The notes under the pieces: model-generated
Told to the model about the DNA's origin: nothing
Databases searched by the model: none
What the model saw: only the letters and a program-made list of their open reading frames with translations
Virus record (IMG/VR): IMGVR_UViG_3300040815_000700
Span: 1 to 44,238 of that record
Length of the DNA stretch: 44,238 nt
Source of the DNA: a virus
Reading direction: 5' to 3' (one strand)
Part shown: in pieces, positions 3,897-41,556 of the stretch
How positions within the stretch are numbered: position 1 is the first letter of the stretch
How the letters are laid out: each line of letters starts with the position of its first letter
Made by a program: the position numbers and the translations under genes

Positions 3897-4112
3897 CTAT
3901 CCTCCCGGTACAAATTCTTTAGGAGTATACCAAACCTTTTGATTGTGTATACGTCCTAGCAGTTCTTGTATCTCACGCATTTCTGCTCTTAACTGTTCGC
4001 TGGTATCACCTTGAGCAATGGCTAAACCTCTACGGCCAGCCTTTGCTCTTAGTGCTTGTTCGATAACCTCAATATCTCTTACTGTAAGTTCAAAGTTATT
4101 ATTAGGTTTCAA
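3897..4112 (-). CDS. Small conserved T4-like phage protein
   Basis: 71 residues with a TTG start at 4112, chosen because AGGAG lies seven bases upstream; a longer frame to 4130 would place the start inside that site. The sequence contains NFELTVRDIEVIEQALR and ends LLGRIHNQKVWYTPK. I recall very similar small proteins of unknown function in marine T4-like phages, with the same order of an ELTVRDIE helix and a C-terminal LLGRIHNQK motif. It is likely helical and cytoplasmic. It follows the tmRNA and its terminator. Confidence 0.7.
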   Translation of the reverse strand: MKPNNNFELTVRDIEVIEQALRAKAGRRGLAIAQGDTSEQLRAEMREIQELLGRIHNQKVWYTPKEFVPGG

Positions 4113-4128
4113 TCTGTGTCTCCTATAC

Positions 4129-4154
4129 AAAAGAAAGCACCCGAAGGTGCTTTC
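4129..4154 (-). terminator. Rho-independent terminator of the tmRNA gene
   Basis: The 9-bp stem GAAAGCACC/GGTGCTTTC closes a UUCG tetraloop on the minus strand, followed by TTTT. It lies directly downstream of the tmRNA coding piece. Confidence 0.85.
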
Positions 4155-4483
4155 CTGCTATGTTTGGTAACAAGGTCTAACTACCTCGTAGCTGCCCTTA
4201 GGCTGCTAATGAATAATTTGCGTTTGCAATTATTAAGTTTGTTCGCGGTAACGGCGCTTACATCCCGGTAACTCCACTCATCTAATAGTTCGCCAATCGA
4301 TCCCAACTCTACCCCATCAAAAACACACTACTTGCAGTATCTTCCTCTGCGTAACCTCTATGGTAGGAGGTAACTTAGTTTATTCGTAGCCTTGCCACTT
4401 CTAGTTCAAAGCAGTGTGTTTATGGTGGAGTAGCCGGGATTCGAACCCGGGTCTTGCTCGCCGTTCAACTTGTTTCAACGTTA
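4155..4483 (-). ncRNA. ssrA: Circularly permuted two-piece tmRNA (ssrA)
   Basis: On the minus strand the acceptor piece comes first and ends at 4423 in CTACTCCACCA, preceded by a T arm with stem CCGGG/CCCGG around TTCGAAT. About 107 bases of spacer follow, then the coding piece begins at 4315 with GGGGTAG. That heptamer pairs with CTACTCC at the 3' end (six Watson-Crick pairs and one G-U), rebuilding a tRNA-like acceptor stem. The coding piece has a D-arm-like GGGATCGATTGGC and a tag reading frame at 4198-4227. The spacer ends pair (AAACACACTGC with GTAGTGTGTTT), as expected for an excised segment. Permuted tmRNA is characteristic of alphaproteobacteria, some betaproteobacteria and cyanobacteria. 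The product rescues stalled ribosomes. The 5' end near 4483 is estimated from the promoter. Confidence 0.9.
4198..4227 (-). other. tmRNA proteolysis-tag reading frame (ANANYSLAA)
   Basis: The resume codon GCA begins at 4227 and the frame reads A-N-A-N-Y-S-L-A-A then TAA. The LAA end is the ClpXP degron, and the layout matches the E. coli tag ANDENYALAA. The stop lies in the TAAG loop of an imperfect hairpin (TAGCAGCC/GGCAGCTA), the position expected for the helix after the tag. Confidence 0.85.
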
Positions 4484-4490
4484 CATACTA

Positions 4491-4519
4491 TTTATAACAC
4501 AAGTAATACTAGATGTCAA
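4491..4519 (-). promoter_or_regulatory. sigma70-type promoter of the tmRNA
   Basis: GGTTGACA (the TTGACA at 4514-4519) is separated by 17 bases from TATAAA (4491-4496) on the minus strand. This predicts a transcript start at about 4484, just before the acceptor piece. The -35 box overlaps the 3' end of the small gene upstream. Confidence 0.8.
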
Positions 4520-4701
4520 CCTCTATTTCAATAACAGATGTTTGTTCACCTTTCTTTTTTAGTCTAGCCATTTCTGGATCTTCATCAATAAACCAGAAAT
4601 ACAAAAGTAATACTACGTTTGTGAGTATTCGCTTATAGTGATAGGAGAAGTCCTAAACACGATAAACTAACAACAAATTCAATCTTTTCAAATGTAGTCA
4701 T
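4509..4701 (-). pseudogene. Small two-span membrane protein gene with an apparent frameshift
   Basis: An ATG at 4701 with GGGAG upstream opens MTTFEKIEFVVSLSCLGLLL and stops after 22 codons at 4633. The +1 frame then continues YKRILTNVVLLLYFWFIDED and runs to a TAG at 4509 without its own upstream start. Joined, they give a ~63-residue protein with two membrane segments and a charged tail ending EIEVDI, which looks like one gene. The break falls at CTA-TAA-G. It could be a real disabling mutation, an assembly error or a programmed +1 shift; the site is not a classical slippery sequence. Confidence 0.45.
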
Positions 4702-8042: not shown

Positions 8043-8804
8043 CTAGAACGTATAACCATTGTTTTCTAGTATAGGTTTATATTGTTGTATTTGTCCTGTA
8101 AAACTGCCATTAGGACCCCAGTGGCGCTTTGGACCTATATCAAGATGTACGAAGTTTGAATAACAACCTATTCCTGTAAATCCTGCATTTATAGCCTGTT
8201 GTATGAAATCAATACGCACTTGAACATTAGTAGTGTCCCAAAGAATATCTACCGCATTGCCCTCCATGTGTTGACTTTTCTTTGCGCCGCCTACTCGTGT
8301 ATTATAAGCGGGCGAACGATATCCGCATGTAATTCGTATAGGCCTTTTTATTTTATTCTTTGCTAAGTCATATAGTTTATCCCATACTTCATCTTTAATA
8401 GAATCACTGACATGAGGTAAAAAGTTTAACCATTCAGTAACTGGTTTTGTTGTTTCTATTGGAGGAGTGCCCTCATCTGATCCAACTCCTGCTGCGTCAG
8501 AACCTGGTGCAGCAATGACTCCTGACTCTCCAGTTGTTGGACTAACTCCGTTAGGACTTCCGCCGCCAAACGATTCTAGTTGTTCATTTATTTCAGGATC
8601 ATTTCCTTCAGCAAGTTCAGCAGAATAACCTGACAATATTGCTCTAGCGTCTTCATCCGATAAACCAACAATGTTATCAACACCTAACGTATCAGCCACG
8701 CCGCCGCCTAGCGTTGGACCACCATTTACAAAAACGCCTTCGGCACCAGTTTGTGCGCTGTCGCCTGCGCTATCAATATCACCTACTCTATGTACTGCTG
8801 GCAT
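8043..8804 (-). CDS. PAAR-like tip fused to an M15 peptidase domain
   Basis: 253 residues from the ATG at 8804 (AGGAG upstream). The N-terminus MPAVHRVGDIDSAGDSAQTG ... GVFVNGGPTLGG resembles the PAAR-type spike tip proteins of contractile tails, of which T4 gp5.4 is one. After a Gly/Glu/Asp-rich linker (~60-120), residues 150-225 form an M15 (D-Ala-D-Ala carboxypeptidase/endolysin) domain. ITCGYRSPAYNTRVGGAKKSQHMEGNAVD supplies H179 and D186, and FVHLDIG supplies H220, the three zinc ligands. A membrane-puncturing tip joined to a peptidoglycan hydrolase would open the cell wall at injection. The gene is downstream of the giant baseplate-region protein. The PAAR part is less certain than the M15 part. 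Confidence 0.7.
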   Translation of the reverse strand: MPAVHRVGDIDSAGDSAQTGAEGVFVNGGPTLGGGVADTLGVDNIVGLSDEDARAILSGYSAELAEGNDPEINEQLESFGGGSPNGVSPTTGESGVIAAPGSDAAGVGSDEGTPPIETTKPVTEWLNFLPHVSDSIKDEVWDKLYDLAKNKIKRPIRITCGYRSPAYNTRVGGAKKSQHMEGNAVDILWDTTNVQVRIDFIQQAINAGFTGIGCYSNFVHLDIGPKRHWGPNGSFTGQIQQYKPILENNGYTF

Positions 8805-8805
8805 A

Positions 8806-11800
8806 TTATACTCCTGTTGTTGAATCACCTAAAAAGTCTGTTAGTGGTTCTAGTGCGCTTGTTAACAAAGTAAGAACTCCTAATTGATTGTTGTCAGACC
8901 CTGCTATAGGCGCTGCATCTTCTGGTTGCCAAGCTATTAAATTATCTCTATTAACATCAAACGTTGTTGGGTCTAAAGCCCAGTCTAATGTGGTGCTTTC
9001 CATAACCATTGCAGTATTAATATAATAATCTTTAGTAACTACTGGAAACAGCATTGTGTCTGTACGAGCTTCTGAGACATCAAAACACTGTTGGCATTTT
9101 AACACAGTGTCAAATCCTGTAATAAACATAGGCACACCGGCTACATTAGTTTGTGGTGCTCCGCCTGGTATACTACTAATCCATATCACAGGAACAATTT
9201 CATTTCCTGCTCCGTCGGTGTTAGTTACTACTTCACCTTGAGTGGGAGTTTTTAGAGAAATTTGAAAATCAGTATTAATATTTTCTTTACCAAAGGAAAA
9301 AGGATAAACTAAGATTTTTCCATCTAATGGCAAATACCATGCTCTTGGTACATCAGTAGTTATAGGTTCTAAACTATCAAAACCTATGTCAGGACTTATA
9401 AATCCTTCTGTTACATCAGGATATCGGCTGCCTCCATAAGTAGATAGTCTTACATTTTGTGGAACTTGATTAGACCATGCTTCTCCAAGATAAGGTAACA
9501 TAGTATCTTGGCTTTTTACTGGTCCAGCTTCTTCTGCTGCATCATCGGTTGCTGCTTGATTAATGATAACAGTTTCATCTTTACCAATTACTAGCCTAGT
9601 AGCTGGTTCAAATGTTCCTTTGAATACTTTACTACCATAAAGTTGCTCAAATCCAACTTGATACACAAAGTTATTACCAAATTTGGCATACCTTATTATG
9701 TTTGCTGCTGGATACTTAGTTGCAAAGTTTGGATTTGGTACTAATGTATTTGCATTGTTAAAATATACACCATTTACAGGTGTAAATGTTGGCGTTGGAT
9801 CTGAGTAGGGAACTTCTTTTGCTATTTCCCACGGCAAGTAATCAACAGCTTCTACAGATTCTCTTGTAAAGAATCCTCCTAAAAAGTCTGTGTATTTTGC
9901 AATCTGTACATCTATTTTTTCACCAGCAAATAAAGTAGGAGTGTTAGATCCAGGTTGATATGTTATTATGTACGAGTCTGGGTATGATGTAACTACTCTA
10001 AATTTATCGACTAACAAACTAACGTCATTGTAAATAAAATTATCAAAAGCAGCAGTTCCTGGCTCTGAAGCTAAAATAGTTCCGATTTGGGAGCCGGCGT
10101 CATAGTCTGTAAATGTAGTGTTATTATTAAACACAAGAGCCATATTTACAAATCTAACTTCTGCAATATTTGTAGGTGGATTAATTAAATCTAACTTCAT
10201 TTCAACTCCGCCCGACGCAGAATTCCCTACCCAGCTTAGAGGATAATTAACATCATCAAAATAGTCATATGTGCCTTGCCAATACTTTTGATCATTAATT
10301 AAACGGACCTTATTGTAGTAAGTTGTGTTAACCTGAGTTACAATATAATTCCGTCCTGCTCCATTAGACGTTCCGCCCGGAGTATCACTTACCCACATAA
10401 CTAAACGTACATCATTTTGTGTAAATGTTGGTGAGTTGAAATTAATTGCCCTTGTATTACTGTCCCATGATACATACCCATACTGCTCAAATTTCTCATC
10501 TGAGTAAGTATCATCAGCAGATATTGGAGGTACTGTAAGTCCTATACTTATTTTAGGTGGTAAAAACACATTCTCTTGAAGTTCATCTACTATGTTCTGT
10601 GGCGTAAACGTATCTTCTAAAAGGTAATTGTGAGGATTAGTTAAAGTTGAATAACTATCTCCTAAGAATGTGTACTTATCATTATAAGAACTTCTAGGTA
10701 TAAAATCAACTTCTTTTTCTAAAAAACTATCATTGCCAAGTCCGCTAGGACCTATGCGTGACGGTGGATATCCGGCGCTGAATATCATTTTATCTACTAA
10801 TACTTGCATTGAGTTTGGTATAATATAAGATTCAAACTCACTTGTACCTGGCTGCTCTTTTATTCCGCCAGCCTCAAGAATAGTTTCTTCAACCCAAGCA
10901 GTGTTAAAGAATCTTAGTTCTCCACCTGGAGTATTACAAATTCCAGCGTTTAATATATTATTCCAAGTTTCACCTCCATACGCACCAGAGAAAACTCCCG
11001 GATCTCCACTCCAGTAAAGTCTTTCAAACCGGCCAGCCGCCCTTGCAAAAACTGTATAAGTAGAACCATTTGGTGTTGCAATTGGTGTTCCTCCTGGGGT
11101 TTCTGAAATCCAAGCTACACCTATAAAATCATTCTCAGACCCAGTGCTACCGACAAATGCTCTATTTGAACCTATTTGAAATGTTCCATATTTTTCTAGA
11201 TTGTCCCTATTAGTCGGATCACTAGGCACAACATAAGGTAAAGTAAATGGTATAGATAATCTTTGGTCAAACTCGACGTCAGTAGCATAAATGCTATTGC
11301 CATTAAAAGGATTTGTGCCTACAATCCAGCTAGGATCACTAAATCCCACTTTATCTGCTATTGTGTAATTAAACGGATTAGGAGCACTTTGGAAGGGCAG
11401 CTGATCATATGCTCCATTGTAGCTACTAGGTCCAAGACCAGTGCCGTCTGCGCCTTCCATACTAACATTATCAATTTGTTGATAAGATGGTGTTGATCCA
11501 TCTTTTGGCGTTGTGAATGTATATATAAAGAACAGCCGATACGGAGTACCTGTAGCAGAAAGATATCTCTCGCCTTGAAATTGCTCTTCTTTCCATGCGC
11601 TAGGAGTTTCACCATTACTAACATACTTCAACTTATATTTGTGTCTTCTTCCGTCTATAAAGTTTTTTGCAAAATACGATCTTTCTTCGCCGAAAGCTGT
11701 AAACTTGCTGTCAATAATACTCATGTCGATCATACGCCAGAGCTGAGAATCGTCAAAAGAATCTAGACCAAAGAAATCTATTAGTTCACTTTCATTAATT

Positions 11801-30962: not shown

Positions 30963-31748
30963 ATGACAAGCAGTATTAAGGACATTGACTTCAAAAAACG
31001 TTCTCTTTTATTTGCTAAACTATCCAAGATATCTTATAATAACATCAAAGTAGCTAAAAAGCAAGCGGAAAGATTAGGTTTCACTGAAGTAGAATTTTAT
31101 AACAAAGACGGTGCGCAAGCATATCGTTTTATGAATGACACAGATATAGTAATTGCGTGTCGCGGAACACAACCTACACAATTTAACGATATTGCAGCAG
31201 ATTTAAAAGCAATGCCTGTCGTTGCTGAAACTGTTAGTAGAGTTCATAGAGGATTTAAAGCAGAAGTAGATGAACTGTGGCCAAGAATAATGGCAGACCT
31301 AATGTCAAAGCAACCTAAGCAAAAACTTTGGTTCTGCGGTCATAGTTTAGGAGCTGCAATGGCAACTATAATGGCAAGTCGCTGTCACTTTAACACACGT
31401 TTGCCAAATCCAGAGGAATTATACACTTATGGTTCACCAAGAGTAGGTTGGAAAGGTTATGTTGTCCATTTAGGTGTCGTACACCATCGTTGGAAGAACA
31501 ATAATGACATTGTCACTACTGTTCCTTATAAATGGATGGGTTATACACATCATGGCGAAGAACACTATATGAATGCATATGGCAATGTTCGCAATTTGAC
31601 TAGGTGGCAGCGTGTTAAGGATCGCTGGCGTGGTATGTGGATGGGAATAAAGAGAGGAAAAATTGATAACTTTTCTGATCATTCTATAGATAATTATATT
31701 CTTTATCTTTCATTATTTGCAAAGGGTAAAGAAAATACACAACACTAG
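30963..31748 (+). CDS. Class 3 lipase-like alpha/beta hydrolase
   Basis: 261 residues. DIVIACRGTQPTQFNDIAAD is the lipase-3 oxyanion region, GHSLGAAMA (S128) the nucleophile elbow, YTYGSPRVG the following strand, NNNDIVTTVPY (D182) the acid and FSDHSIDNYI (H240) the base, so the triad is complete. The family cleaves acylglycerols or phospholipids. There is no signal peptide, so the enzyme would act from the cytoplasm on the inner membrane or be released at lysis. A basic, Trp-rich segment (RWQRVKDRWRGMWMGIKRGK) may bind membrane. It is the first gene of the plus-strand island, behind a perfect late box. It could aid lysis or recycle lipids. Confidence 0.85.
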   Translation: MTSSIKDIDFKKRSLLFAKLSKISYNNIKVAKKQAERLGFTEVEFYNKDGAQAYRFMNDTDIVIACRGTQPTQFNDIAADLKAMPVVAETVSRVHRGFKAEVDELWPRIMADLMSKQPKQKLWFCGHSLGAAMATIMASRCHFNTRLPNPEELYTYGSPRVGWKGYVVHLGVVHHRWKNNNDIVTTVPYKWMGYTHHGEEHYMNAYGNVRNLTRWQRVKDRWRGMWMGIKRGKIDNFSDHSIDNYILYLSLFAKGKENTQH

Positions 31749-31887: not shown

Positions 31888-31916
31888 TTGACATACACCC
31901 TGTAAGATGCTATTAT
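31888..31916 (+). promoter_or_regulatory. sigma70-type promoter of the alternative oxidase operon
   Basis: GGTTGACA (TTGACA at 31888-31893), 17 bases, then TATTAT (31911-31916). It predicts a ~155-base leader before the DUF1127 gene. Confidence 0.8.
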
Positions 31917-32077: not shown

Positions 32078-32335
32078 ATGACTACGTTGACAATGGCGGC
32101 TGGTACCAGCCTTTCAGGAGTAGCGAACTGGATCAAAAAAATAAACGCTAACATGGCACACAGAAGAGCTGTGCGTCAAGCAGTAAAAGACCTTTCAGCA
32201 CTAACAGACTATGAACTACATGACATTGGTATTTCCCGTGGAGATATCCGTGCTGTTGCTAATGGTGATACTTCTATGAAAAGAGGTATCCAAGTCCACA
32301 CAGATGCTAACACAAACCTCAAGGGGTGGGTGTAA
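32078..32335 (+). CDS. DUF1127 family protein
   Basis: 85 residues from the ATG at 32078, with AAAGGAGAA upstream; a longer in-frame GTG lacks one. The segment LSALTDYELHDIGISRGDI (residues 39-57) is the DUF1127 signature, preceded by an Arg/Lys-rich helix (NANMAHRRAVRQAVKDL). DUF1127 proteins are small Arg-rich host regulators abundant in alphaproteobacteria, with reported RNA-related roles in carbon and phosphate metabolism. The stop shares a base with the next start (TAATG). Likely acquired from the host, it may tune host RNA or metabolism together with the oxidase. Its presence in a phage is unusual. Confidence 0.85.
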   Translation: MTTLTMAAGTSLSGVANWIKKINANMAHRRAVRQAVKDLSALTDYELHDIGISRGDIRAVANGDTSMKRGIQVHTDANTNLKGWV

Positions 32336-32520
32336 TGGAAGCTGTAGGTGACACAACTATTAAAATTAATCCTTTCAAAGCAATTGGCAAAACTATAATT
32401 GCAATTTGGATTGGCTTCATAGCATTTGGCGAGTCAGCAGGCAGAGCAAGAGCTGCTGCTGAATTAAGTCGTCAAGGCTATCACGCAGAAGCAAAACGTT
32501 TGATGTTAGAGAAACGCTAA
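32335..32520 (+). CDS. 61-residue microprotein with membrane-like segment and ARAAxEL tail
   Basis: MEAVGDTTIKINPFKAIGKT leads into a hydrophobic stretch IIAIWIGFIAFGESAG and then RARAAAELSRQGYHAEAKRL. The tail resembles that of the next microprotein (MAIRELRTKGLYKEAQRI), with the shared pattern A-x-x-E-L-x-x-x-G-x-x-x-E-A-(K/Q)-R. Microproteins ending in an ARAAxELxRxGxxxEAK tail occur beside DUF1127 genes in alphaproteobacteria as far as I recall. Both start and stop overlap neighbours, so it is translationally coupled. Function unknown. Confidence 0.65.
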   Translation: MEAVGDTTIKINPFKAIGKTIIAIWIGFIAFGESAGRARAAAELSRQGYHAEAKRLMLEKR

Positions 32521-32654
32521 TGTGGAAACGTTTTATTAAAGCAATGGAATACAGAAGTTACTGTATGGCAATTAGAGAATTGCGTACAAAAGGTTTGTAC
32601 AAAGAAGCTCAAAGAATTTCTGAGTTCAAACACAACATGTATAAAACATCATAG
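32520..32654 (+). CDS. 44-residue microprotein, soluble, related tail
   Basis: The ATG shares a base with the previous stop (TAATG). The product, MWKRFIKAMEYRSYCMAIRE then LRTKGLYKEAQRISEFKHNM, is basic and helical, and its central part aligns with the C-terminus of the preceding microprotein. It lacks the membrane segment. It appears to be a paralogue or half-copy. Confidence 0.55.
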   Translation: MWKRFIKAMEYRSYCMAIRELRTKGLYKEAQRISEFKHNMYKTS

Positions 32655-32663
32655 GAGATAGAA

Positions 32664-32789
32664 ATGAATAGGTTAAGAAATGCAATTAAGAATTGCGATG
32701 GACAATTTTGCGATCAGATTATGGAAGCGGCGCTTGCTATAACTGTATTCAGCATCATGTACATATCTATTGCGCAAATGACTGCGTAG
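32664..32789 (+). CDS. 41-residue single-span membrane microprotein
   Basis: ATG at 32664 with TAGGAGATA upstream. [20 protein letters not shown] is followed by one span [21 protein letters not shown]. It ends four bases before the oxidase gene, so it may be a small accessory subunit or membrane partner of the oxidase. Confidence 0.6.
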
Positions 32790-32793
32790 TAAT

Positions 32794-33414
32794 ATGACGC
32801 TGGTCCACTACAAGCCAACCTCTACGTCTGACTATTTTGCATACGGCTTTACTAAAAGTATGCGATGGTTTGCGGATACGTTCTTCCGTAAACGTTATGG
32901 GCATAGAGCAGTTGTATTAGAAACAGTAGCCGCAGTACCAGGAATGGTAGGCGGCATGTGGACGCATCTTAGAAGTTTGCGTAAACTACGCCCTGGATAT
33001 GGGCCACTAATCCGTACCCTACTAGCAGAAGCAGAAAATGAACGTATGCATTTGATGACGTTCATTGAAATTGCAAAGCCCAATTGGTTTGAAAGACTGC
33101 TCATACTGGTTGCACAAGTTATATTCTGGCATGTATACTTTATAGTATTTCTTATATCGCCATCTACTGCACACAGAATAGTAGGTTACTTTGAAGAAGA
33201 AGCTGTGTATTCGTACACAGAATATCTTAATGAGCTTGACGAAGGGCGCATTGAGAATGTTCCTGCACCTAGAATTGCAATTACGTATTGGAACTTAGCA
33301 GATGATGCTAGGTTGCGTGATGTAATTCTAGCTGTTAGAGATGACGAAGCAGGACATAGAGATGTTAATCATTATATTGCAACATATGGCAATGTAAAGG
33401 TTGACAAGTACTAA
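32794..33414 (+). CDS. aox: Alternative oxidase (ubiquinol:O2 oxidoreductase)
   Basis: 206 residues. All diiron motifs are present: [13 protein letters not shown] (E43), [11 protein letters not shown] (E83, H86), [13 protein letters not shown] (a Glu at 134-136) and [11 protein letters not shown] (E185, H188). Two hydrophobic helices (~101-123) fit monotopic membrane attachment. The family oxidises ubiquinol and reduces O2 to water without pumping protons. EEEAVY carries Tyr where most members have His, which is not a metal ligand. It lies last in a coupled operon after DUF1127 and three microproteins. The length is short compared with plant enzymes but normal for bacterial ones. In infection it could keep NADH oxidation going, limit oxidative stress or bypass the host chain. 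Alphaproteobacterial origin by context is inference. Confidence 0.95.
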
Positions 33415-33429
33415 ATAATACGTTATATT
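33401..33429 (+). promoter_or_regulatory. sigma70-type promoter after the oxidase
   Basis: GGTTGACA (TTGACA at 33401-33406), 17 bases, then TATATT (33424-33429). It overlaps the end of the oxidase gene and drives the gene at 33466. A CTAAATA late-type box (33411-33417) is embedded in the spacer, so the unit may be read early and late. Confidence 0.7.
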
Positions 33430-33849: not shown

Positions 33850-33879
33850 AAGCCCGGGTTAGGAAACTAGCTCGGGCTT
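33850..33879. terminator. Bidirectional hairpin between converging transcripts
   Basis: A 13-bp stem with G-U pairs (AAGCCCGGGTTAG/CTAGCTCGGGCTT) closes a GAAA tetraloop, between the plus-strand island and the minus-strand fibre. T runs are poor, so it may work with Rho or as an RNA 3' end stabiliser. Confidence 0.6.
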
Positions 33880-33887
33880 AATCTTGA

Positions 33888-35549
33888 TTAAAAGATAAGA
33901 CTATAAGCAAGAGCATCTTCATCTGACACGCCACTTGCTGCTGCAAGTTTACCTTGAACATCAGTTAGATCTGATATGTCAGGTTGATCTGCTAGATCAT
34001 TATAACTGCCTGACGTAGCTACTGTTGCTAAATCAGCGGTATTTGCTTTGAGTGCAATGTTGCCATTTAAGGTAGTTAGGAAGTCTGCATCATCACCTAT
34101 TGCATCTGCTAGTTCACTCAGCGTGTCTAGTACAGCCGGAGCATCGCCTACTAGATTTGATACTGCTGTTGATACTGCGCTATCTGTTTCTGTTTTAGTA
34201 TATACATCTGTAATGCCATATCCTGCTACAGTAGTAGGTGTTGTTGTTAGGTCAGCAAACGCGACTGATGTTAGATAACTTTGTAGATCACTTATTTGAC
34301 TTTCAGTTACACTAAGTGCTGCTTGGTGTGTAGTAACATCTGATTGTGTAACTGTATAACTCTGTAATGCTGTATCAGCTAATGCACCTTGTGCTGCCGT
34401 TGCCGCATCTGTTATTCCATATCCCGATAGTGTTGTAGGTTTAGAAGTTAAATCTGCAAATGCTACTGTTGTAAGATATGTACCAAAGTCACTAATTTGG
34501 CTTTCTGTTATACTTAAAGCCGTTTGATGAGCAGTTACTTGTGCTTCAGACACTGCTGTCAAATAACTTTGCAGGTCACTTATTTGACTTTCAGTTATAC
34601 TTAACGCTGCTTGATGGGAAGTTACCATACCTTCTGTAACTGTAAAACTTTGTAGTGCGCTATCTGCTAGTGCGCCCTGTGCTGATGTAGCAGCATCTGT
34701 AATCCCATAACCAGCAAGTGTTGTAGGCTTACCAGTTAAGTCAGCATATGCTCCACTGAACAATGTAGGCTTATTAGTTAAATCGTCATAGTCTTCACTA
34801 AAGGCATCTGCCGCTAGTTGATATACTGTTAAGTCTGGAAGGTTAGTTAGATCATTATAGTTTGATGTGCCGCCTCCTCCTCCGCCACCTAGTAAGCTAC
34901 CTGTGTCTGTAAGATCGCTTACGTCTGTAGGTATAGTTGGCTTGTTTGAAAGGTCAGCATATGATCCACTGAATAAAGTTGGTAAATCTGTAAGTTCGTT
35001 ATAACTTGTAACCCCGCCACTACCAGTGCCAATTGCTACGCCGCCGACTTTACTTCCAGAAGGTAAATCAATGCCGCCGCCTGAATTGCGACTTATTTCT
35101 GCTGTACCTAAAAAGATAGTATTGCCGCTAAGATATAAGTCACGGAATTTTTTAGAAGCACTACCTAAATCAATTAGTTCAGTTGTGCCAGGAATAAGAT
35201 TTGAAGTTATATTTGATGGATTAAATAGTGTAGGAGTATTAGTTAAAGAGTCATAGTCACCATCAAAAACAGTTTCATCTACAAACTCAATTGCACTTGC
35301 TTGTGCATTTACTTTTAGATATTTGCCGCCGTGTCCGCTGAAAGAGCCAGGCGTATCTAATAGCTGTCTGAATGTACTTGCACCGCCTTCGCCGCCTCCA
35401 GAACTTAGAGGTATTCCGCCTGGTGTTGCACCATCTGACAAGCGCATAACGCCATCGTCAATGTCAAAGAATATATTGCCGTCTTCTCCTACAAAATCAT
35501 TTACGCTGATTTTGACTAGACCGGCTTTGATTTTGCGGACCAATCCCAA
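33888..35549 (-). CDS. Tail fibre with GYGITDA and DLTNKPT repeats, TTG start
   Basis: 553 residues starting with TTG at 35549 behind AGGAGG eight bases upstream. The N-terminal part (MGLVRKIKAGLVKISVNDFV ... FFDIDDGVMRLSDGATPGGI) is a virion-attachment region. The body repeats DLTNKPTLFSG, TLAGYGITDAAT and ESQISDLQSYL many times, a pattern typical of phage tail fibre shafts. The C-terminus resembles a short tip (GVSDEDALAYSLIF). Host recognition is expected. Repeat-rich DNA here may recombine. Confidence 0.8.
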   Translation of the reverse strand: MGLVRKIKAGLVKISVNDFVGEDGNIFFDIDDGVMRLSDGATPGGIPLSSGGGEGGASTFRQLLDTPGSFSGHGGKYLKVNAQASAIEFVDETVFDGDYDSLTNTPTLFNPSNITSNLIPGTTELIDLGSASKKFRDLYLSGNTIFLGTAEISRNSGGGIDLPSGSKVGGVAIGTGSGGVTSYNELTDLPTLFSGSYADLSNKPTIPTDVSDLTDTGSLLGGGGGGGTSNYNDLTNLPDLTVYQLAADAFSEDYDDLTNKPTLFSGAYADLTGKPTTLAGYGITDAATSAQGALADSALQSFTVTEGMVTSHQAALSITESQISDLQSYLTAVSEAQVTAHQTALSITESQISDFGTYLTTVAFADLTSKPTTLSGYGITDAATAAQGALADTALQSYTVTQSDVTTHQAALSVTESQISDLQSYLTSVAFADLTTTPTTVAGYGITDVYTKTETDSAVSTAVSNLVGDAPAVLDTLSELADAIGDDADFLTTLNGNIALKANTADLATVATSGSYNDLADQPDISDLTDVQGKLAAASGVSDEDALAYSLIF

Positions 35550-37305: not shown

Positions 37306-38493
37306 ATGATAGATAAAAAACCATTCCAACAAAAACTTGAACAGCTCAAACAGGAAGGCAAGTACCGTGTATTCAATGATATACTACGTGAACGCGGAAA
37401 GTTTCCTAAAGCTATTTGGTACGGAAAGTATGCAATCAAAGAGATTGTAAACTGGTGCTCAAATGATTACCTCGGAATGGGCCAGAACAAAATAGTCATA
37501 GATGCAATGCACACTGCATTAGATCAGACAGGCGCTGGCAGCGGAGGCACCAGAAACATAGGAGGCACTTCACACTATCATGTAGCATTAGAACACGAGC
37601 TGGCTGACTTGCATAGCAAGCAGAGTGCGCTCCTCTTTTCTAGTGCGTATGTTGCAAATGAATGGAGTTTGGTTGCTCTAAAACAAATCATTCCCGACAT
37701 TGTGTTCTTAAGTGATTCAAATAATCACGCATCTTTGATTCAAGGGATAAGACACAGTGGTGCTGACAAGATCATATGGCAGCACAATGATATGAACGAC
37801 CTAGAGGATAAGCTAAAAAATGTTTCAGGTACACCATGTATTGTGTTCGAGTCTGTGTATAGCATGGACGGAGATGTGTCGCCTATCCTCGATATTTGCA
37901 ACCTAGCGGACCAGTATGGGGCGATGACATACATTGATGAGGTTCATGCCGTAGGATTATACGGAGAACAAGGAGCAGGCTACTTACAGAAACTAAACCT
38001 GCAGGATAATGTAGATATCGTAAACGGTACGCTAGGCAAGGCCTTTGGAGTACAGGGCGGGTACATAGCAGCGGATGCTGACATCATAGATGCGATCCGT
38101 TCTGTAGCTTCAGGCTTTATTTTTACAACCAGTATGAGTCCTGTGACTTGTGCTGGTGCTCTTGCTAGTATCAAATACTTGCGAGATCATAACGAGTTAC
38201 GTGAACAGCATCAAGAACGTGCTCGTAAACTCAAACACAGGATGATCAAAGCGGGATTAGAACCAATGGGGAGTTCAACTACTCACATTGTGCCGTTGCT
38301 TATTCGTGATGCTTTACTATGTAAAGAAGTAAGTGACTCGCTTATTAATGACTACGGGATATACGTACAACCGATAAACTATCCTACAGTGGCCGAAGGT
38401 ACTGAGAGACTTCGCTTTGCTCCCACGCCATATCATACTGACGGTATGATTGAGGACTTAATTAAAGCATTAACAGAGGTAATTAATGGTTAA
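37306..38493 (+). CDS. hemA: 5-aminolevulinate synthase (Shemin pathway)
   Basis: 395 residues, nearly the length of the alphaproteobacterial enzyme. Family motifs are all present: [11 protein letters not shown] (49-59), [17 protein letters not shown] (76-92), [17 protein letters not shown] (136-152), YSMDGDVSP (185-193), [15 protein letters not shown] (211-225) and [15 protein letters not shown] with the pyridoxal-phosphate Lys at K245 (K248 in Rhodobacter). The end [20 protein letters not shown] is also typical. It condenses glycine and succinyl-CoA to ALA, the committed step of haem, and should work in the cytoplasm. No Shine-Dalgarno site is clear; TTAAATA ends five bases before the ATG. 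It overlaps ybaN by eight bases. Confidence 0.97.
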
Positions 38494-38899
38494 AAAATAT
38501 ATATGGATGGGCTTAGGCTTTCTATCCTTAGGAATGGCCTACGTAGGCGTAGTCGTACCAGGCATTCCGTTTTCAATCTTCTTAGTATTTGCAGCATATT
38601 GCTTTGCTAAGAGCAACAAAAAAATGCACGATTGGTTATACAATCACAAATACTTTGGCCCGTTCCTAACTAATTGGGTGCAAAAGAAAGTATTCCCTAC
38701 ATGGGGCAAATACGCAATGGTACTAGTAATGAGTAGTTCTCTTGCGTTTTTGTGGTTTAGTACAGGTAACATCAAAGCTGTAGTATGGAGTGGAGGCTTT
38801 ATGGCACTAGTTGCTATATGGGCTTGGCGTTATCCTGGATCAGTTGAAGAACAAGAACGCAGAGTTCGTACTGGAGAAAAGATTGCTTGGTTTAAGTAG
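38486..38899 (+). CDS. ybaN: YbaN-like inner-membrane protein (DUF454)
   Basis: 137 residues overlapping hemA by eight bases. The DUF454 pattern is visible: [40 protein letters not shown] and then a loop YFGPFLTNW, with further hydrophobic segments at ~75-92 and ~96-112. Four membrane spans are likely. The family's role is not established in bacteria. Its coupling to ALAS suggests a shared unit captured from a host, perhaps linked to haem use in the inner membrane, but this is inference. Confidence 0.85.
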
Positions 38900-41022: not shown

Positions 41023-41556
41023 CTAAAAAAAGGTTTTAACTTGATCTTGACTTATTTCAGCTACTGCTTTGTTCCATAAGTCGTTTGAGTTTGATTCAAT
41101 AAGACTACGTGTAGGATGTGGCAGTACTAACCATTCGGGTTTGCGTCTGCGTACTTCATGTTCTAGTTCATTTGGTGACCAACCCGAGCAACCAATAAAC
41201 AGTTTATGCCAATCAGGAAAGTCTCCCATTGCCATTTTATCTATCATAAGTTCGTCTGAGCTTATACTTAGATCATTGTTAACTTGGAGTGTATTGCGGC
41301 TGTACCAATTGTCTGAATGCAACATTACCATTGCATTTCTATTATACTGCCCGCCGTTATAGATTTTTTGATTCCATCCCCATTCTGTATTGTTTTCACG
41401 CATTACAGTTTTCATTGTTTCAGTACTGGGTTTGTTTAGAATTAGTCCTACTGTACTGTGTTCTGTGCTTTCAGTAATATAAACAACAGTTTCAGCAAAT
41501 TCATATTTTGCATGAACTGGATGGGCTACGAGAAGGCTACCGGTAATCAACTGCAA
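41023..41556 (-). CDS. YqgE/AlgH family protein, TTG start
   Basis: 177 residues with a TTG start (GGAG upstream). GSLLVAHPVHAKYEFAETVV, YITESTEHSTVGLILNKPS and NGGQYNRNAMVMLHS are hallmarks of the UPF0301 (YqgE/AlgH) family, and FIGCSGWSPNELEHEVRRRK matches the conserved GYAGWGPGQLExE region with Ser/Cys changes. The family's biochemical role is not settled; in Pseudomonas AlgH affects alginate regulation. Cytoplasmic. A phage copy could modulate host transcription or redox state, which is speculative. Confidence 0.85.
   Translation of the reverse strand: MQLITGSLLVAHPVHAKYEFAETVVYITESTEHSTVGLILNKPSTETMKTVMRENNTEWGWNQKIYNGGQYNRNAMVMLHSDNWYSRNTLQVNNDLSISSDELMIDKMAMGDFPDWHKLFIGCSGWSPNELEHEVRRRKPEWLVLPHPTRSLIESNSNDLWNKAVAEISQDQVKTFF

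What the first reader, a model, noticed from the sequence alone, without database searches (positions are those of the whole stretch)
32078..33414. Complete alternative oxidase in a phage, in a coupled operon with a DUF1127 regulator and three microproteins
The protein at 32794-33414 keeps all diiron motifs of a ubiquinol alternative oxidase (seen in sequence). Cyanophages carry the related plastoquinol oxidase PTOX (established), but here the setting is heterotroph-like: a DUF1127 gene and three microproteins joined by TAATG overlaps or very short gaps, behind a strong sigma70-type promoter. The operon reads as a captured host respiratory-control unit. It could let infected cells oxidise NADH without building excess proton motive force, limit reactive oxygen, or bypass the host chain (inference).
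Basis: partly seen in the sequence, partly recalled or inferred. Interest (0 to 1): 0.9.

Follow-up and report, generated by a model that had tools for sequence, protein, structure and literature searches.

The report
Respiratory cargo slot in marine phages
A marine T4-like phage, probably of an alphaproteobacterium, carries a complete alternative oxidase gene in an operon of phage small proteins where related phages carry a copper electron carrier, an ATP-synthase ring subunit or none of these, so these viruses seem to rewire the respiration of the cells they infect.

Summary
Window 32794-33414 encodes a full-length alternative oxidase (AOX, Pfam E 1e-80). All six diiron ligands are kept in the window and in 44 of 45 non-redundant viral rows; the predicted fold matches trypanosome AOX (TM 0.90); dN/dS is 0.08-0.10. 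The window is phage DNA, T4-like, with an alphaproteobacterial-type permuted tmRNA. It is a ubiquinol-type AOX, not cyanophage PTOX. In IMG/VR 563 stretches encode relatives, but only 1 of 50,697 INPHARED records does (E 1e-5). I found no paper on it in the open library searched.

The DUF1127-mp1-mp2-mp3 small-protein cassette is a phage module. It is beside 0 of 80 bacterial AOX genes, and mp1 is in 0 of 190 alphaproteobacterial genomes. Of 26 clusters of related phages found through another gene (ALAS), 3 carry AOX next to the cassette, 7 a pseudoazurin-like cupredoxin, 2 an ATP-synthase c subunit, and 14 none of these. AOX sits at three or more junctions. I read this as a swappable respiratory-cargo slot, parallel to the cyanophage PTOX-plastocyanin cassette. 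Likely function (inferred): a non-pumping quinol oxidase that keeps NADH and quinol turning over during infection.

The parts
31888..31916 (+). sigma70-type promoter-like site TTGACA-17-TATTAT, TG before the -10, upstream of the operon
   Evidence: 11 of 12; the same site is found in 6 of 16 scanned cassette loci, all close relatives
32078..32335 (+). DUF1127 small protein, 85 aa
   Evidence: PF06568 E 3.1e-10; adjacent to mp1 in 21 of 80 AOX and 40 of 80 ALAS viral loci
32335..32520 (+). mp1, 61 aa, hydrophobic stretch plus conserved GESAGRARAA.EL motif; phage-specific as far as tested
   Evidence: TAATG overlap; alignment; 0 of 190 alphaproteobacterial genomes, 12 of 12 phage records
32520..32654 (+). 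mp2, 44 aa, conserved MEYRxYCMAI motif
   Evidence: TAATG overlap; relatives in 17 of 81 AOX loci, motif
32664..32789 (+). mp3, 41 aa, one hydrophobic stretch
   Evidence: relatives in 11 of 81 AOX loci and in AOX-less phages
32794..33414 (+). alternative oxidase (ubiquinol-type diiron oxidase), 206 aa
   Evidence: PF01786 E 1.1e-80; PDB trypanosome AOX E 4.8e-49; AF2 model pLDDT 86, Foldseek TM 0.90 to 9m2a/3vv9; ligands kept
33401..33429 (+). promoter-like site of the next gene; its TTGACA lies in the last codons of AOX (VDKY)
   Evidence: 11 of 12; the same TTGACAA element follows mp3 directly in AOX-less L168 and L169
33466..33783 (+). p105, 105-aa protein of unknown function, distal border of the slot in many relatives
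   Evidence: relatives in 24 of 81 AOX loci; order
33850..33879 (+). intrinsic-terminator-like hairpin after p105
   Evidence: 13 pairs, 7 GC
30963..31748 (+). class-3 lipase-like gene, upstream neighbour of the slot in many relatives
   Evidence: PF01764 E 2.6e-19; synteny
37306..38493 (+). 5-aminolevulinate synthase (phage alaS)
   Evidence: TIGR01821 571.9 bits, cutoff 338.55
38486..38899 (+). DUF454 membrane protein overlapping ALAS
   Evidence: PF04304 E 3.5e-28
4143..4535 (-). permuted (alphaproteobacterial-type) tmRNA, tag ANANYSLAA
   Evidence: RF01849 58.7 bits (gathering 50) and RF04321 91.1 bits; ARAGORN 4107-4517
33888..35549 (-). tail-fibre-like protein next to the operon (phage hallmark)
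   Evidence: PHROGs tail families E down to 3e-10
8043..8828 (-). endolysin-like protein (phage hallmark)
   Evidence: phrog_894 E 1.9e-20

Best explanation
The gene is most likely a working, phage-owned ubiquinol alternative oxidase. It is carried as exchangeable cargo in a conserved operon of phage small proteins (DUF1127-mp1-mp2-mp3 | cargo | p105) in T4-like phages, probably phages of marine alphaproteobacteria. Shown: the gene is intact, under purifying selection and keeps its ligands; the small-protein operon exists without it; other electron-transport or bioenergetic genes (pseudoazurin-like cupredoxin, ATP-synthase c subunit) occupy the same place in sister phages. Inferred: it is transcribed early by host sigma70 polymerase and translated by coupling to mp3 (4-nt gap, no clear Shine-Dalgarno by eye). 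The protein docks on the inner membrane, oxidises ubiquinol and reduces O2 to water without pumping protons. That lets NADH oxidation and central carbon flow to nucleotides and amino acids run at full speed when the host bc1/oxidase branch is limiting, damaged or no longer renewed during infection, and it limits over-reduction of the quinone pool and ROS.
For: Identity and integrity. Purifying selection: dN/dS 0.075 (window-L010), 0.093 (window-L011/L012), 0.100 (L011-L013); the other five pairs are saturated at synonymous sites. Phage setting; terminase relatives in 7 of 50 AOX contigs and 3 of 16 (L258 is in both sets). Breadth: 393 and 563 IMG/VR stretches encode relatives; the first 80 loci fall into 47 clusters at 95% DNA identity. 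AOX type: 25-33% identity, best E 3e-3, to cyanophage PTOX; PTOX separate in the tree. Slot: of 80 ALAS-found viral loci, 40 have DUF1127 and mp1 adjacent, in 26 clusters, with next to the cassette AOX in 3, cupredoxin in 7, ATP-synthase c in 2, none of these in 14; all 14 have a far border on the same contig (p105 in 12, reversed DUF454-ALAS in 2; read), so they are not cut off at the slot. Cargo families: PF00127 56.5-60.5 bits (cutoff 21.2), PF00137 47.6 bits (cutoff 24); copper ligands H, C, H, M (recalled set) in all 11 distinct full-length cupredoxin rows. The cupredoxin match starts 34 and 26 nt after the AOX match in L022 and L048, and 223-224 nt after it in L028, L040 and L042. Junctions: AOX after mp3 (window), between mp2 and mp3 (L023), after DUF1127 (L226 group). 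Known phages with a DUF1127-like match (6 INPHARED records, weak, E 2e-3 to 1e-2) have alphaproteobacterial hosts.
Against: No activity, expression or infection data exist here. The host is unknown, so it is not known whether it makes its own AOX. 14 of 26 cassette clusters carry none of the three cargo types within 2.5 kb, so the cassette itself need not be about respiration. One of 45 non-redundant viral rows (L334) lacks a ligand. 43 of 50 AOX contigs gave no match to the one terminase used as probe; most are fragments, and some IMG/VR contigs could be misassigned. The promoter is kept only in close relatives (6 of 16 loci). COX-IV-like and DoxX-like slot genes score below Pfam cut-offs, and the cupredoxin and c subunit fall below NCBIfam cut-offs. 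One window protein (DUF6267) also has relatives in Methylophilales phages (4 of 72 records), whose hosts are not alphaproteobacteria. The trees are quick ones with SH-aLRT support only and many weak forks. The loci are the best 80 hits to each query, not random samples.
Confidence: 0.7

Rival explanations
1. A captured host respiratory-control operon: DUF1127, microproteins and AOX were taken together from a bacterium.
For: Tight gene packing and a sigma70-like promoter. DUF1127 proteins in Agrobacterium and Rhodobacter act in metabolism and RNA processes (PMC11707872, abstract and section 33).
Against: 0 of 80 bacterial AOX loci have any of the five neighbour genes; mp1 in 0 of 190 alphaproteobacterial genomes (control); DUF1127 in 0 of 60 Pelagibacteraceae-family genomes; no AOX next to the cassette in 23 of 26 phage clusters.
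Confidence: 0.05
2. AOX serves mainly as an oxygen, ROS or poison valve (scavenging O2, tolerating NO, sulfide or cyanide that block haem-copper oxidases), not as a driver of biosynthetic flux.
For: AOX enzymes are insensitive to inhibitors of haem oxidases (established knowledge; the title of 3vv9 calls the enzyme cyanide-insensitive). The enzyme is diiron, not haem.
Against: No inhibitor-related genes were recognised beside it (no dedicated search). Co-occurring cargo (cupredoxin, ATP-synthase c, ALAS) points to electron transport in general.
Confidence: 0.2
3. AOX compensates for loss of the haem-based branch because phage ALAS/tetrapyrrole metabolism diverts haem; AOX and ALAS form one functional module.
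For: ALAS and DUF454 lie 4 kb downstream in the window; ALAS is in 7 of 50 AOX contigs.
Against: AOX is present in only 8 of 80 ALAS loci and ALAS in only 7 of 50 AOX contigs; many contigs are fragments. The link may only reflect one phage lineage that carries both.
Confidence: 0.1
4. A passenger gene or bacterial contamination without a role in infection.
For: Sporadic distribution: 3 of 26 cassette clusters carry it. One viral row of 45 lacks a ligand.
Against: Purifying selection, ligands kept in 44 of 45 non-redundant viral rows, many contigs, phage neighbours on both sides in the window.
Confidence: 0.03

Closest known systems
Cyanophage PTOX (plastoquinol terminal oxidase), with petE plastocyanin, zwf and gnd in a hypothesised mobile cassette (PMC3037559, passages); beside an NAD(P)H oxidoreductase in S-N03 (PMC7472177, passages; record)
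   Same: T4-like marine phages; a diiron quinol oxidase as auxiliary gene; accompanied in some phages by a blue copper protein (here pseudoazurin-like); sporadic, cassette-like distribution
   Different: Ubiquinol-type AOX, only 25-33% identical with best E 3e-3, tree apart; alphaproteobacterial-type tmRNA; slot defined by DUF1127 and microproteins; ATP-synthase c as a further cargo
Proteobacterial AOX (PF01786)
   Same: Same family, full length, 63-74% identity to the best 80 bacterial loci
   Different: No shared neighbours; viral rows mostly fall in virus-rich clades that also hold freshwater Polynucleobacter and one Lake Baikal Pelagibacteraceae row
Phage C48C1 (OQ984149, Kyanoviridae)
   Same: The one INPHARED record with an AOX relative at E 1e-5, 57% identity, annotated hypothetical protein
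   Different: AOX lies between a tRNA-Thr gene and a clamp-loader gene, without the small-protein cassette nearby
Viral alaS (valaS) phages, Wegner et al. 2024, PMC11480375 (abstract and passages)
   Same: The window's ALAS is of this published kind; aquatic phages
   Different: 'alternative oxidase' and 'DUF454' occur 0 times in that paper's text; the respiratory slot is not described in the passages seen

Membership tests
Alternative oxidase (AOX, PF01786) | Pfam AOX model over gathering score, full length | tested here: met
   270.7 bits against 22.7, profile 10-215 of 216
Alternative oxidase (AOX, PF01786) | Six diiron ligands (four Glu, two His in E, ExxH, E, ExxH) | tested here: met
   present in the window; 83 of 83 rows (56 distinct); 44 of 45 non-redundant viral and 64 of 64 bacterial rows; aligned to trypanosome AOX; ligand assignment recalled
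Alternative oxidase (AOX, PF01786) | Quinol-pocket residues (Arg38, Leu42, Ala137, Tyr141 here) | tested here: met
   invariant in 45 of 45 non-redundant viral rows; assignment to the pocket recalled
Alternative oxidase (AOX, PF01786) | Monotopic four-helix diiron fold | tested here: met
   AF2 pLDDT 86, pTM 0.85; TM 0.90, rmsd 1.8 to 9m2a/3vv9
Alternative oxidase (AOX, PF01786) | Cyanide-resistant ubiquinol:O2 oxidoreductase activity | not testable with these tools
   needs expression and respirometry
Cyanophage PTOX (phrog_4235) | Close sequence relationship with phage PTOX | tested here: not met
   phrog_4235 E 1.9e-4 only; three PTOX rows apart, 100* (long branches)
DUF1127 small protein | PF06568 over gathering score | tested here: met
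   40 bits against 23.3
Captured host AOX operon | Same gene order in bacterial chromosomes | tested here: not met
   0 of 80 bacterial AOX loci
Phage auxiliary metabolic gene | Host-type metabolic gene inside a phage genome, flanked by phage genes, under selection | tested here: met
Phage auxiliary metabolic gene | Benefit during infection | not testable with these tools
   needs a cultured phage

The most novel reading that the evidence does not exclude
A widespread group of T4-like phages of heterotrophic, alphaproteobacterial marine hosts carries a dedicated respiratory-cargo slot. It is a conserved operon of phage-specific membrane microproteins and a DUF1127 protein into which an alternative oxidase, a pseudoazurin-like copper carrier (with COX-IV-like and DoxX-like partners) or an ATP-synthase c subunit is swapped. 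It rewires the host respiratory chain at the quinol, cytochrome-c or ATP-synthase level, and so arrives independently at the cyanophage PTOX-plastocyanin solution. The microproteins may act as assembly or tuning factors on host respiratory complexes.
Probability: 0.5. Interest if true: 0.82.

Novelty: new variant of a known kind. Interest (0 to 1): 0.7.

Why it matters
Phage control of host energy metabolism is best documented for cyanophages and photosynthesis (my general knowledge). Here respiration in heterotrophs appears to be the target, with a recurrent set of exchangeable parts. If true, infected ocean bacteria may consume O2 and NADH without making the corresponding ATP, which bears on respiration and carbon budgets of infected cells. 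The locus also gives a testable handle: naturally occurring sister phages differ in which bioenergetic gene sits in one place.

Tried and rejected
Captured host operon: rejected. PTOX: rejected. Bacterial contamination of the window: rejected. One origin of viral AOX: one search gave one 48-row set (40 viral, 8 bacterial, SH-aLRT 99), but wider sampling found a second viral set (6 rows) beside Pelagibacteraceae AOX (95) plus single rows elsewhere, with at least 6 changes of label forced by starred branches; the split that corresponds to the first set is at 92 there and now includes a very long row (L270). So several exchanges took place; direction is open because the trees give no sure root. 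Gain or loss of AOX at the L023/L169 junction: AOX-less L169 shares the last codons and stop of the L023 AOX with the DNA downstream. I first noted this as a deletion scar (note), but an insert that borrowed flanking DNA as its C-terminus explains it as well, as the window's VDKY end over the p105 promoter suggests; left open. SAR11 as host is neither shown nor excluded (DUF1127 in 0 of 60 of that family). tblastn of the 1642-aa protein against phages: no match. The claim that phage ubiquinol AOX is not in print rests in an open-access library only. They listed seven distinct papers; I looked at passages of five (cyanophage PTOX, or unrelated) and judged PMC8382173 and PMC9260272 by title.
Full report
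What is there. The window is a 44,238-base virus record. Frame 32794-33414 (+) encodes 206 aa that match the Pfam AOX model almost end to end at E 1.1e-80 and trypanosome AOX in the PDB at E 4.8e-49. A model built from 35 aligned proteins has mean pLDDT 86 and pTM 0.85 and matches the crystal structures with TM 0.90 and rmsd 1.8. The six iron ligands, and the Arg, Leu, Ala and Tyr positions that I recall as the quinol pocket, are invariant in 83 of 83 rows of the first viral set. Those rows hold only 56 distinct sequences, with the window counted twice. In the wider non-redundant set five ligands are kept in 45 of 45 viral rows and the sixth in 44 of 45 (L334 has Ala), and all six in 64 of 64 bacterial rows. 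Between the window and L010, L011 and L012 dN/dS is 0.075-0.093, and 0.100 for L011 against L013; five further pairs were saturated at synonymous sites. The gene is intact and under purifying selection.

The setting is phage. Window proteins match phage endolysin, tail-fibre, virion-structural, exonuclease, HNH and ribonucleotide reductase families. NrdA is 72% identical to cyanophage T4-like phages, p284 up to 46%, and the DUF6267 protein has distant relatives mostly in cyanophages and in four Methylophilales phages. No terminase, portal or major capsid match came up among the 30 window proteins scanned against PHROGs; the window is a fragment. The RNA scan finds an alphaproteobacterial, permuted tmRNA at about 4.1-4.5 kb (ARAGORN). 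A second AOX phage, L026, has a permuted tmRNA directly upstream of its AOX. The six INPHARED records with a weak DUF1127 match infect alphaproteobacteria.

The operon. DUF1127 (32078-32335), mp1, mp2 and mp3 precede AOX, with two TAATG overlaps and gaps of 9 and 4 nt. A promoter-like TTGACA-17-TATTAT with TG lies at 31888. It recurs in 6 of 16 scanned cassette loci, all close relatives; two further loci have a 10-of-12 site and eight have none. After AOX comes p105, with its own 11-of-12 site at 33401, then a terminator-like hairpin at 33850. The TTGACA before p105 is also the coding sequence for the last residues of AOX, and the same element stands right after mp3 in AOX-less relatives L168 and L169, whose ALAS proteins are 92% and 89% identical to the window's. 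AOX therefore looks set into a pre-existing phage operon.

The cassette is phage-owned. Profiles built from the window's small genes find DUF1127, mp1, mp2, mp3 and p105 beside 0 of 80 bacterial AOX genes. mp1 is found in 0 of 190 alphaproteobacterial genomes, while the same profile finds it in 12 of 12 phage records; other classes were not searched. DUF1127 is in 0 of 60 genomes of the Pelagibacteraceae family. Among 80 IMG/VR loci found by AOX, 21 have DUF1127 adjacent to mp1; the 80 loci form 47 clusters, 11 of them with the cassette.

The cargo slot. To sample phages without choosing for AOX, I searched IMG/VR with the window's ALAS and kept the best 80 of 524 relatives. Forty have DUF1127 and mp1 adjacent on one strand, in 26 clusters at 95% ALAS DNA identity. 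Within 2.5 kb of the cassette and on its strand, 3 clusters carry AOX, 7 a cupredoxin, 2 an ATP-synthase c subunit and 14 none of these. In the 14 the far side of the slot is present on the contig (p105 in 12, reversed DUF454-ALAS in 2; read). Reading nine slots directly and testing ten of their genes by Pfam gives plastocyanin/azurin family at 56.5-60.5 bits (cut-off 21.2) and ATP-synthase C at 47.6 bits (cut-off 24). NCBIfam's closest model for the cupredoxin is pseudoazurin at about 100 bits, just under its cut-off of 109.85; the c subunit's best model is at 60.8 bits, under its cut-off of 85. The copper ligands (recalled set) are kept in all 11 distinct full-length rows; a twelfth row, L178, begins at the contig end after the first ligand. 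A COX-IV-like and a DoxX-like gene follow the cupredoxin in some phages but score below Pfam cut-offs. The cupredoxin match begins 34 and 26 nt after the AOX match in L022 and L048, and 223-224 nt after it in L028, L040 and L042. AOX itself lies after mp3 in the window, between mp2 and mp3 in L023, and after DUF1127 in the L226 group. INPHARED holds no match to the c subunit of L191 at E 1e-3 and one distant match for the cupredoxin, a cyanophage petE.

Descent. A quick tree of 109 rows puts 40 viral rows and 8 bacterial rows (six Polynucleobacter or other beta-proteobacterial rows, one Polynucleobacter MAG contig, one Lake Baikal Pelagibacteraceae) in one set at SH-aLRT 99, apart from three cyanophage PTOX rows. 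I read the frames of 80 aa or more around six of the eight bacterial loci by eye; they look like bacterial chromosome, with no phage gene that I recognised, and in L084 and L085 AOX follows a gene that reads like a type II NADH dehydrogenase. A second tree with rows from two further scans keeps the window's group of five at 99. It adds a second viral group of six beside Pelagibacteraceae AOX at 95 and a few single viral rows, including one with a Halomonadaceae MAG. Of that second group L303 (218 kb) and L258 (283 kb) carry terminase relatives, as does L306 (195 kb), whose AOX is 92% identical to that of L303 and was not kept as a row. AOX has thus moved between phages and bacteria more than once. 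For tree rows I dropped near-identical sequences (165 and then 247 candidate rows to 109 each), left C48C1 and the PTOX rows out of the second tree, and used only the best 80 loci of each large scan.

How it most likely works. AOX oxidises ubiquinol and reduces oxygen without pumping protons (established for the family). In an infected cell whose own chain is no longer renewed, this would keep NADH turnover, and so carbon flow to nucleotides, from being held back by proton-motive force or by damage to the haem branch, and it would limit ROS. The parallel with cyanophages is close. There petE and PTOX commonly occur with zwf and gnd in a hypothesised mobile cassette and are thought to keep electrons from backing up (PMC3037559, passages); in S-N03 an NAD(P)H oxidoreductase gene neighbours PTOX (PMC7472177, passages). 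DUF1127 proteins have divergent roles, from RNA-related processes to membrane association (PMC11707872, abstract and one section), and small membrane proteins can stabilise terminal oxidases (PMC12719787, passages). The small proteins here could therefore tune host complexes, but nothing here tests that.

What is known. Phage ALAS is published (PMC11480375, abstract and passages). Cyanophage PTOX is published. Seven searches of the open library listed no paper that, by title or by the passages I read, reports a ubiquinol AOX in phages; subscription papers and preprints are outside that library.

Noticed in passing
window 37306-38899 (+): 5-aminolevulinate synthase overlapping a DUF454 membrane protein; the pair recurs in many relatives. 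Phage ALAS is published, and the DUF454 partner is not named in that paper's text.
   Followed up: partly
window 4143-4535 (-): Permuted alphaproteobacterial-type tmRNA in the phage, tag ANANYSLAA.
   Followed up: partly
L026 5519-5910: Another AOX phage has a permuted tmRNA (tag ANENFAPVAYALAA) directly upstream of AOX.
   Followed up: no
L191 5804-6022 and the L227 group: Phage-encoded ATP-synthase c subunit in the slot, with the AEALG motif kept in both distinct sequences; L191's is over the Pfam cut-off and has no INPHARED match.
   Followed up: partly
L258, contig of 282,855 bases: Large virus with a Pelagibacteraceae-like AOX (70%) and terminase matches in three pieces.
   Followed up: no
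L334 4001-4585: The one non-redundant viral AOX row with a ligand position changed (Ala at E185); real loss, sequence error or misalignment not decided.
   Followed up: no
window 41023-41556 (-): AlgH/YqgE-like (DUF179) protein in the phage, PF02622 E 5.5e-29.
   Followed up: no
L084 and L085: In beta-proteobacterial genomes AOX follows what reads like a type II NADH dehydrogenase gene, a likely NADH-quinone-O2 pair, and this AOX lies in the virus-rich clade.
   Followed up: partly
L024: AOX inside an array of nine tRNA genes in another phage lineage, one called tRNA-Pyl(cta) by ARAGORN.
   Followed up: no
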